NCBI RefSeq assembly: GCF_000008545.1
Contig: NC_000853.1
Coordinates: 386,465 to 450,464 of the forward strand
Source: Thermotoga maritima MSB8
GTDB lineage: Bacteria > Thermotogota > Thermotogae > Thermotogales > Thermotogaceae
DNA length: 64,000 nt
Direction of reading: 5' to 3'
The position numbers and the translations under genes were made by a program. A model generated the notes under the pieces. It was not told the origin of the DNA. It searched no databases and worked only from the letters and a program-made list of their open reading frames with translations. Below are positions 54,317 through 56,580 of this stretch, piece after piece; the first letter of the stretch is position 1; every line of letters starts with the position of its first letter.

Positions 54317-55403
54317 GGTTTTTTCTCATCCTTCCGTACCTGTCTGCTGCTTTTAGGGCGAAAAACACATCCTTTGATGTCACAGGTTGGGGTTCGTTGT
54401 GTATTGTTTCATTCTTGTCACAGGCTTTCTCAGCCACTTTCATCAGATCCTCGTCCGAAACACCATCAAGTCCTATCTCTGCCAGAGTAGTGGGTAATCC
54501 CACTTCTTCACAGAAGGAGTAGACCTCTTCGATCATCTTTCTGGGTTTGTCAGTCAAAAACAGTGATGCGAGAACTCCTATGGCCACTTTTTCCCCGTGT
54601 AAATACTTGTGGGTATTTTCCAGAACGGTGAGACCGTTGTGAATAGCATGTGCAGCTGCCAGTCCTCCACTTTCGAATCCCAGACCACTTAAAAGGGTGT
54701 TCGCCTCAACGATTTTTTCAAGGGCAGGTGTGACAGACTTTTCCTCCACCGACCTTTTCGCAAGTACACCGTATTCTAGAAGTGTCTCATAGCAAAGTCT
54801 TGCGAGCGCGTAGGCTGTCATCGAACCAAGTCTTCCCGTCATATTTGGAGCGTATTTCTGTTTACAAGATTCTGCCTCAAACCACGTGGCAAGGGCATCT
54901 CCCATTCCGGCAACAAGAAACCTCGCGGGGGCTTTCGCCACAATCTCCGTGTCTACCAGAACGACATCTGGATTCCTTGGCAAAAACAGGTATCTTTTGA
55001 ATTCCCCGTTTGGTGTGTAAATCACGGAAAGGGCGCTGCATGGAGCATCTGTAGAGGCAATAGTTGGAACAATCACAACAGGCTTTTTCAACTTATAGGC
55101 GACCGCTTTAGCGGTATCGAGTGTTTTTCCGCCACCTATGCCCACCACCACGTCTGTTTCTTCTTCAACAAGACCTGAAAGTCGCTCTATCTCTTCGTCT
55201 GAACACTCTCCACCAAAGATCTGTTTGTTTACCCTGACTTTTGTGAAAGAGCTGAAGAAATTTTCTCCTAGCACGTTTTTGTCCACAAAATCATCGATCA
55301 CCACAAATGCCCTTTCTCCAAAACGAGAAAGTTCTTCTTCTAGAATGTTGATAGCACCTGCCCCCTGAACATATCTACCTGGAAATATGGTGGTTGTTAT
55401 CAT
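54309..55403 (-). CDS. gldA: Glycerol dehydrogenase
   Basis: This is a 364-residue NAD- and zinc-dependent polyol dehydrogenase (glycerol to dihydroxyacetone). The NAD-binding GIGGGKTLDTAKAVAYKL and zinc ligands are present: Asp in GMGDALATWFEAE, His in AAAHAIHNGL and His in THKYLHGEKVAIG. The start at 55403 follows AGGAGGTGA and gives the length of the structurally solved T. maritima enzyme. It lies alone on the minus strand between the inositol uptake operon and the transposon remnant. With gpsA damaged, glycerol and glycerol phosphate metabolism in this strain is worth a look. Confidence 0.95.
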   Translation of the reverse strand: MITTTIFPGRYVQGAGAINILEEELSRFGERAFVVIDDFVDKNVLGENFFSSFTKVRVNKQIFGGECSDEEIERLSGLVEEETDVVVGIGGGKTLDTAKAVAYKLKKPVVIVPTIASTDAPCSALSVIYTPNGEFKRYLFLPRNPDVVLVDTEIVAKAPARFLVAGMGDALATWFEAESCKQKYAPNMTGRLGSMTAYALARLCYETLLEYGVLAKRSVEEKSVTPALEKIVEANTLLSGLGFESGGLAAAHAIHNGLTVLENTHKYLHGEKVAIGVLASLFLTDKPRKMIEEVYSFCEEVGLPTTLAEIGLDGVSDEDLMKVAEKACDKNETIHNEPQPVTSKDVFFALKAADRYGRMRKNLT

Positions 55404-55492
55404 GATTATCACCTCCTACCATTATTATCAACCTTAATTGTTAAATTTTTCACGAAGTATAGAAAAATTTTTATTAAGACTTGCAAAGAGGA

Positions 55493-55689
55493 CTCCATCT
55501 TCTACAAGGTGCTTTAATGTTAGAGAATGGACGTGAACCGCATGTGGAGCGCATCACGATAGAAACAGGAACCGTCCGAGTTCATGCCCGTGGACCGTGC
55601 TCTGGCGGCAGAACCCGAAAAGGGTCTACGATCTATCACGGGTCGAAGCGGAGAGCCTTGCCTTCTATGGAGCAGGGTAGTTCACAATA
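55493..55689 (+). pseudogene. Remnant of an IS200/IS605 element: TnpB 3' end with possible omega-RNA
   Basis: An open frame here reads ...LENGREPHVERITIETGT, then VRVHARGPCSGGR and SKRRALPSMEQGSS. This Gly/Arg-rich, low-hydrophobicity text resembles the disordered C-terminus of TnpB proteins, which usually ends in a (M)-(E/K)-Q-(E/G) segment, and is unlike neighbouring genes. GC content is higher than its surroundings. Upstream catalytic domains and TnpA are absent, so only the 3' end survives. The DNA ends ...GGTAGTTCAC, like an IS605 right end. CCCGTG/CACGGG and GCTCT/AGAGC can pair in pseudoknot order around an ACCC/GGGT hairpin, as expected for an omega-RNA. Identification is by resemblance only. 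The rest of 55404-55492 is AT-rich gldA upstream DNA. Confidence 0.45.
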
Positions 55690-56580
55690 TCAACCAAATA
55701 TACTCTCTAGGATGACAGCCCAGACAGGAAGAGTAAAGATGGCAAAGAAAGTGGTGAGAGTAACACCATAACTCACTGTTTCACTATCGCCACCGAGGGC
55801 GGAGGTGAGAATCACTGCGTTCACAGCAGCAGGCATCGCGGTTTCCAGCACGAAAACCTTGGCTGTGAGTCCTTCAAGACCGTAAATCAGAGCGAAAACC
55901 AGTGCAATGAGGGGGGCAAGGAAGAGCTTATTCACAACGATGATCCCGCCAATCTTTGAAAGATGTCTTCCCAGTTTCAGTTTGGAAACAGACAATCCCA
56001 CGTAAATAAGAAGGTACGGTATGGCAGATTGCTTCAACATCAAAATAGCATTTACAAGCCATTCGGGAAGTTCCCGAAAACTCCAGCCCAATTTTCCAGT
56101 TAGAAATCCAGCAACCAGAGCGTATACGTAGGGAAGTTTGAACAGATTTTTGACATTCACCTTCTCGCCAAGGAACATAGGGAGAACGGCGGAGAACATG
56201 ATGATGTTCAGGGTGGCGTAAACAACTCCGAGAGAAAGTGCTTCTTCTCCCCACAAAGAAAGAAGGATAGGATATCCCAAATAGCCAACGTTTGCGGTAA
56301 CTGCGGTGACGTGAATCACTTCTTTTTTCTCCTTGAAGAGTCTGGAATAAAGATAGAAGATAACAAAAATAATAGCCACTCCAAGTCCGAATTCTCCAAG
56401 AGTTGAAAAACTGGGAGTGTACTCGTTTATGAAGGTAAACGTTACCGTTGGAACCATGACCCAGATTGCAACTTTTGAAGCAAGACCCATTGTTTCTTCA
56501 GAAAAGATTTTCCCCACTGTGTAGCCGATGAGTATGATGAGAAAAGACGGGATTATCGCCGAGAACGTCGTGTAGAGCAT
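55690..56580 (-). CDS. AEC-family (auxin efflux carrier-like) permease
   Basis: This is a 296-residue membrane protein with ~10 helices in two repeats. The family pattern shows in IIPSFLIILIGYTVGKIF at the N-terminus and in ALGGDSETVSYGVTLTTFFAIFTLPVWAVIL at the C-terminus, where the polar ...S.G..LT.FFA.....W core of AEC proteins is conserved. Bacterial members (e.g. MdcF, MleP-like) transport malonate, malate or related organic acids by secondary transport. It is the last gene of the minus-strand operon starting at or before 62119, so its substrate may be an acid or cyclitol handled by the oxidoreductases. The stop abuts the TnpB remnant. Confidence 0.85.
   Translation of the reverse strand: MLYTTFSAIIPSFLIILIGYTVGKIFSEETMGLASKVAIWVMVPTVTFTFINEYTPSFSTLGEFGLGVAIIFVIFYLYSRLFKEKKEVIHVTAVTANVGYLGYPILLSLWGEEALSLGVVYATLNIIMFSAVLPMFLGEKVNVKNLFKLPYVYALVAGFLTGKLGWSFRELPEWLVNAILMLKQSAIPYLLIYVGLSVSKLKLGRHLSKIGGIIVVNKLFLAPLIALVFALIYGLEGLTAKVFVLETAMPAAVNAVILTSALGGDSETVSYGVTLTTFFAIFTLPVWAVILESIFG

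What the first reader, a model, noticed from the sequence alone, without database searches (positions are those of the whole stretch)
55493..55700. Orphan TnpB 3' end with pseudoknot-capable RNA: a fossil or retained omega-RNA
The peptide resembles a TnpB C-terminus, and the DNA ends in a right-end-like GGTAGTTCAC. In RNA, CCCGTG (55587) pairs with CACGGG (55637), GCTCT (55599) pairs with AGAGC (55652) across it, and ACCC/GGGT forms an inner hairpin, i.e. an H-type pseudoknot as in omega-RNAs. The catalytic part is gone, yet the fold is intact. If transcribed, the guide would be the sequence after ~55686, which is antisense to the 3' end of the AEC permease gene, so a TnpB supplied in trans could be aimed there or the RNA could regulate it.
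Basis: partly seen in the sequence, partly recalled or inferred. Interest (0 to 1): 0.62.

Follow-up and report, generated by a model that had tools for sequence, protein, structure and literature searches.

The report
Decayed IS605-type transposon remnant
This is a 211-bp remnant of an ordinary IS605-type (tnpB-only) transposon that has lost most of its gene; the guide-RNA segment it still carries is decaying at random, so it is a fossil and shows no sign of being a kept working RNA.

Summary
So this is an internally deleted 211-bp element (55475-55685). Two congeners have the site empty; two carry the same insertion, one with ~83 bp more of tnpB, so it decayed in place.

I built the omega-RNA structure from intact relatives. 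Its helices covary. The family's likely pseudoknot joins the loop of the first hairpin (GAA) to the terminal UUC, as in ISDra2. The fossil keeps 28 of 34 consensus pairs (orthologues 24), what random mutation gives; an intact relative at equal divergence keeps 33. Differences between orthologous copies break pairs without compensation. The guide's DNA match is unique here and lacks TTTAT beside it.

Verdict: ordinary fossil with a known precedent (PATE-like elements). A retained trans-acting omega-RNA is unlikely, not excluded.

The parts
55470..55474 (+). TTTAT target-adjacent motif at the left border
   Evidence: TTTAT (TTTATC in the others) precedes the left end of this copy and of four other insertions of the element; TTTGT at the empty site upstream of dnaG
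55475..55511 (+). left-end remnant of the element
   Evidence: 25 of 29 identical to the left end of the intact copy; best of 200 shuffles 18 of 29
55512..55519 (+). internal-deletion junction; the orthologue in G003 has ~83 bp more of 5' tnpB here
55519..55566 (+). remnant of tnpB around the zinc-finger and last RuvC motif, frame lost; a second deletion joins it to the 3' segment
   Evidence: 90% identity to the intact copy over 48 bp
55558..55685 (+). decayed omega-RNA scaffold / right end
   Evidence: covariance model R1 96.5 bits against 127-157 for the sequences it was built from; 28 of 34 pairs
55562..55577 (+). hairpin H1, 4 of 6 pairs left; loop GAA 55569-55571
55587..55591 (+). 5' arm of helix H0 (partner about 55648-55652), weakened by the GGGAAG to GGAGAG change
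55595..55599 (+). 5' arm of helix H2 (partner 55637-55641); intact here, broken at 55595 and 55599 in the orthologues
55613..55625 (+). hairpin H3, intact here, broken at 55623 and 55625 in the orthologues
55657..55676 (+). subterminal right-end hairpin H4, 7 of 8 pairs
55681..55685 (+). right-end terminus TTCAC; UUC 55681-55683 is the 3' side of the inferred true pseudoknot; CTGAC in the orthologues
55686..55705 (+). flanking host DNA that would be the guide; runs over the stop codon (55690-55692) of the AEC permease gene

Best explanation
An IS605-type element carrying only tnpB inserted next to a TTTAT motif, 4 bp beyond the stop codon of an AEC permease gene, in an ancestor of this strain and two congeners. 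Deletions then removed most of tnpB in place, leaving 211 bp: the left end, a scrap of tnpB, and the right end with its omega-RNA scaffold. The remnant now drifts and has no function as a guide RNA. Shown: homology of both ends, empty sites in relatives, a longer version at the same site in one relative, loss of base pairs at the random rate. Inferred: that it is not transcribed or not bound by TnpB.
For: Both ends match an intact 405-aa tnpB element in the same genome. The orthologous site in G001 and G004 lacks the element; G002 and G003 have it, and G003 keeps ~83 bp more. This strain and G002 differ at 6.6% of relic sites (6.7% in the omega-RNA part), close to third codon positions of the flanking permease (9.3%) and above positions 1+2 (1.9%). 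Pairs kept 28 and 24 of 34 against random expectations of 27.4 and 25.3, while an intact relative with 19 differences keeps 33 (P 0.003). Five pairs lost on the G002/G003 branch, no compensation. Folding energy no better than shuffles (z -0.43; intact copy -2.47).
Against: The scaffold is still recognised by the covariance model (96.5 bits); in this strain H2, H3, the terminal UUC and the H1-loop GAA are still there. Two other dead copies in the genus keep 31-32 of 34 pairs, so some scaffolds outlast their tnpB. An intact TnpB exists in the genome to act in trans.
Confidence: 0.88

Rival explanations
1. Retained stand-alone omega-RNA: the remnant is transcribed, loads onto the intact TnpB encoded elsewhere and directs cleavage of insertion-free alleles of this site, so that the insertion is kept.
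For: Intact TnpB with all three catalytic acidic residues and zinc finger in the genome; omega-RNA still recognisable; three decayed insertions in the genus all keep the 3' end.
Against: Structure lost at the random rate; H1 damaged here, H2, H3 and the terminal UUC damaged in the orthologues; no TTTAT beside the guide match in this genome and no second match within 2 mismatches over 16 nt; no promoter-like site on that strand.
Confidence: 0.05
2. A mobile miniature element (PATE/MITE) of this IS, moved in trans by a transposase.
For: It has both ends and no gene; three Y1 transposase matches exist in the genome; PATE-like ends-only IS605 elements are described (PMC7290912).
Against: No second copy with the same deletion in this genome or the genus; a longer version at the same site in G003 shows in-place deletion; left-end hairpin has a mismatch and the G002/G003 right end is mutated.
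Confidence: 0.04
3. A co-opted antisense or 3'-UTR regulatory RNA acting on the AEC permease mRNA.
For: The + strand past 55686 is antisense to the 3' end of the permease gene.
Against: This geometry follows from any such insertion just behind a stop codon; absent from two congeners that have the same two genes; near-neutral divergence; no promoter-like site.
Confidence: 0.03

Closest known systems
PATE-like ends-only IS605 derivative of Halanaerobium hydrogeniformans (PMC7290912)
   Same: 28 nt of left end, last 58 nt of tnpB and the whole right end; single copy in a genome with decaying IS605 elements
   Different: Other IS group; there from a tnpA+tnpB element, here from a tnpB-only one; decay in place is shown here by orthologues
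Intact tnpB element of the same genome, C1:1059184-1060398
   Same: Both ends, TTTAT motif, C-terminal codons, omega-RNA architecture
   Different: Full 405-aa TnpB, 33 of 34 pairs
ISDra2 omega-RNA (cryo-EM, PMC10097598)
   Same: Terminal UUC at -5 to -3 pairs with a GAA-type trinucleotide (-105 to -103) in the first hairpin; matching trinucleotides are conserved and covary in a few members of this family
   Different: In ISDra2 the pairing bases lie in a long loop closed by stem 1, here in a 3-nt loop; no structure of this family is known to me

Membership tests
IS200/IS605 family element (tnpB-only, IS1341-like), internally deleted | Left and right ends homologous to an autonomous copy | tested here: met
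IS200/IS605 family element (tnpB-only, IS1341-like), internally deleted | Insertion 3' of a fixed short motif, without target duplication | tested here: met
   TTTAT at five insertions; empty sites in G001/G004 here and in the own genome at the dnaG locus; a few bases of the empty site here are diverged
IS200/IS605 family element (tnpB-only, IS1341-like), internally deleted | Y1 transposase or TnpB reading frame (required of an autonomous member, not of a deleted derivative) | tested here: not met
   only a C-terminal scrap of tnpB remains; hence filed as a remnant, not as an element of the family in working order
PATE/MITE (mobile miniature element) | Several copies with the same deletion at different sites | tested here: not met
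Functional omega-RNA of this TnpB family | Consensus helices H0-H4 kept | tested here: not met
   28 of 34, the random expectation; intact members 32-34
Functional omega-RNA of this TnpB family | H1-loop GAA pairing with terminal UUC | tested here: inconclusive
   bases present here, but H1 stem damaged; broken in orthologues
Functional omega-RNA of this TnpB family | Transcribed and bound by TnpB | not testable with these tools
   no RNA data at hand; the T. maritima transcriptome paper lists 12-13 putative ncRNAs in supplements I could not open (PMC3636130)
   pair 44-104 broken in 12 of 12; the first helix excludes the better supported H0 and H2

The most novel reading that the evidence does not exclude
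The remnant is a gene-less guide cassette that borrows TnpB from another locus to destroy insertion-free alleles of its own site, i.e. selfish retention in trans by a dead transposon.
Probability: 0.04. Interest if true: 0.5.

Novelty: new member of a known kind. Interest (0 to 1): 0.14.

Why it matters
As a fossil it matters little. If a gene-less remnant still guided TnpB in trans, it would show that an insertion can be defended by a scaffold alone. The better candidates for that idea are the two other decayed copies in the genus, whose scaffolds are nearly intact.

Tried and rejected
Rfam on 55400-55800 gave only chance matches, and no Rfam family covers this omega-RNA in the intact copies tested. 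Pfam finds nothing in the relic peptide. I considered a mobile miniature element because both ends are present; rejected because no second copy exists and the orthologue in G003 is longer. Retention of the 3' end in all three decayed insertions of the genus is no evidence for selection by itself: left ends are kept too, and the sample is three.

Full report
What is there. The segment 55520-55685 is the 3' end of a tnpB element. The same genome (1,860,725 bp, the size I remember for Thermotoga maritima MSB8; the tools give it no name) holds an intact copy at C1:1059184-1060398 that encodes a 405-aa TnpB with the OrfB_IS605 and zinc-ribbon (Cas12f1-like TNB) domains; it aligns with ISDra2 TnpB, the three acidic catalytic positions included.

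Upstream, 55483-55511 matches the left end of the intact element at 25 of 29 positions; the best of 200 shuffled controls reached 18. Left ends of several insertions start behind TTTAT, and the relic has TTTAT at 55470-55474. Right ends finish at TTCAC or TTTAC. So the element runs from 55475 to 55685, 211 bp, with nearly all of tnpB deleted.

History. In G001 and G004 the same two genes flank a site without the element; G002 and G003 carry it. G003 has ~83 bp more of 5' tnpB at the left junction while the junctions further right are shared. The remnant therefore formed by deletions at one site, not by spread of a miniature element; no second copy with these junctions exists in the genus. At another site, upstream of dnaG, G002 and G003 have a decayed copy and the window's own genome has an empty site, which agrees with these borders.

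The omega-RNA. I collected 3' ends of related tnpB genes from Thermotogota, other genomes and viral contigs. Twelve close ones, ten of them used for the model, align over 127 positions. RNAalifold and my own reading agree on helices H1, H0, H2 and H4 and on the place of the inner hairpin H3, where the two use slightly different registers. For my structure 95% of cells are paired, 11 pairs have changes on both sides, and the covariation score is 0.347 against 0.19 in shuffles and at most 0.12 in slid versions. Scope: two of the twelve are themselves decayed copies; the model R1 was built without them.

On the same alignment its second helix has one pair broken in all twelve sequences, and its first helix uses bases that H0 and H2 pair better. 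A 6+5 bp H-type motif occurs in 42% of dinucleotide shuffles of the relic; the relic has seven such combinations, a number reached by 6% of shuffles. The pseudoknot seen in ISDra2 by cryo-EM joins -5 to -3 (UUC) to -105 to -103 (PMC10097598). In this family the loop of H1 is GAA or GGA and the end is UUC in most of 81 sequences, with GAC/GUC and GGC/GUC as covarying alternatives in a few. That scan was automatic and misplaces some rows (for example L051, L095 and L126), so it is support and not proof.

Is the fold kept? The model scores 127-157 bits on the sequences it was built from, 123-127 on the copy at C1:137926 and its orthologues, 111 on the dnaG copy, 96.5 on the window and 77 on the two orthologues. 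The window keeps 28 of 34 pairs and the orthologues 24. Random substitutions at the same distance from the best intact copy leave 27.4 and 25.3; an intact relative at equal distance keeps 33 (P 0.003). The distance is measured from one reference copy, so these are approximate. Between this copy and the G002/G003 copy the changes in the scaffold break pairs in H1, H2, H3 and H4 and alter the terminal UUC, none compensated. The scaffold part differs at 6.7% of sites, nearer to the third codon positions of the neighbouring permease gene (9.3%) than to positions 1+2 (1.9%); only two haplotypes are compared, since G002 and G003 are identical there. As a single strand it folds no better than shuffles (z -0.43), unlike the intact copy (z -2.47). 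All this says drift.

Guide and target. The first 16 nt match the genome only at this place with up to two mismatches, and there the neighbour is TTCAC, not TTTAT. A TnpB with this guide would not be expected to cut here; in principle it could cut an insertion-free allele, of which this genome has none.

Judgement. A decayed internally deleted IS605-type element, of a kind already described as PATE-like (PMC7290912). What remains open is transcription, which I could not test.

Noticed in passing
G000:C1:137926-138244 (L006 1430-1860), orthologues in G002 and G003; G002:C1:1330290-1330529 and G003:C9 upstream of dnaG: Two other copies of the element have a destroyed tnpB but omega-RNA scaffolds with 31-32 of 34 pairs. 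Better candidates for a stand-alone omega-RNA than the window relic, though recent insertion would explain it too.
   Followed up: partly
window 55475-55685 against G002 (L066) and G003 (L067): G002 is a mosaic: like this strain left of about 55512, identical to G003 to the right of it, so a recombination breakpoint seems to lie inside the remnant.
   Followed up: no
G000:C1:1059184-1060398 and G002:C1:1561816-1563030: Intact tnpB elements, 98% identical, sit at different sites in the two species with no Y1 transposase gene next to them: recently mobile, presumably with a transposase in trans.
   Followed up: partly
L131:1124-1333 and 1501-2691: In a viral contig a HEARO RNA (RF02033, 162.6 bits), the IscB-type guide RNA, lies directly 5' of a TnpB gene.
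   Followed up: no
L005, L078, L091, L131, L149: The covarying omega-RNA of these tnpB elements matches no Rfam 15 family.
   Followed up: partly
G006:C18:6240-7504: A broken Y1 transposase, a broken TnpB and an omega-RNA match (52.7 bits) lie in a row: perhaps a relative with its own tnpA.
   Followed up: no
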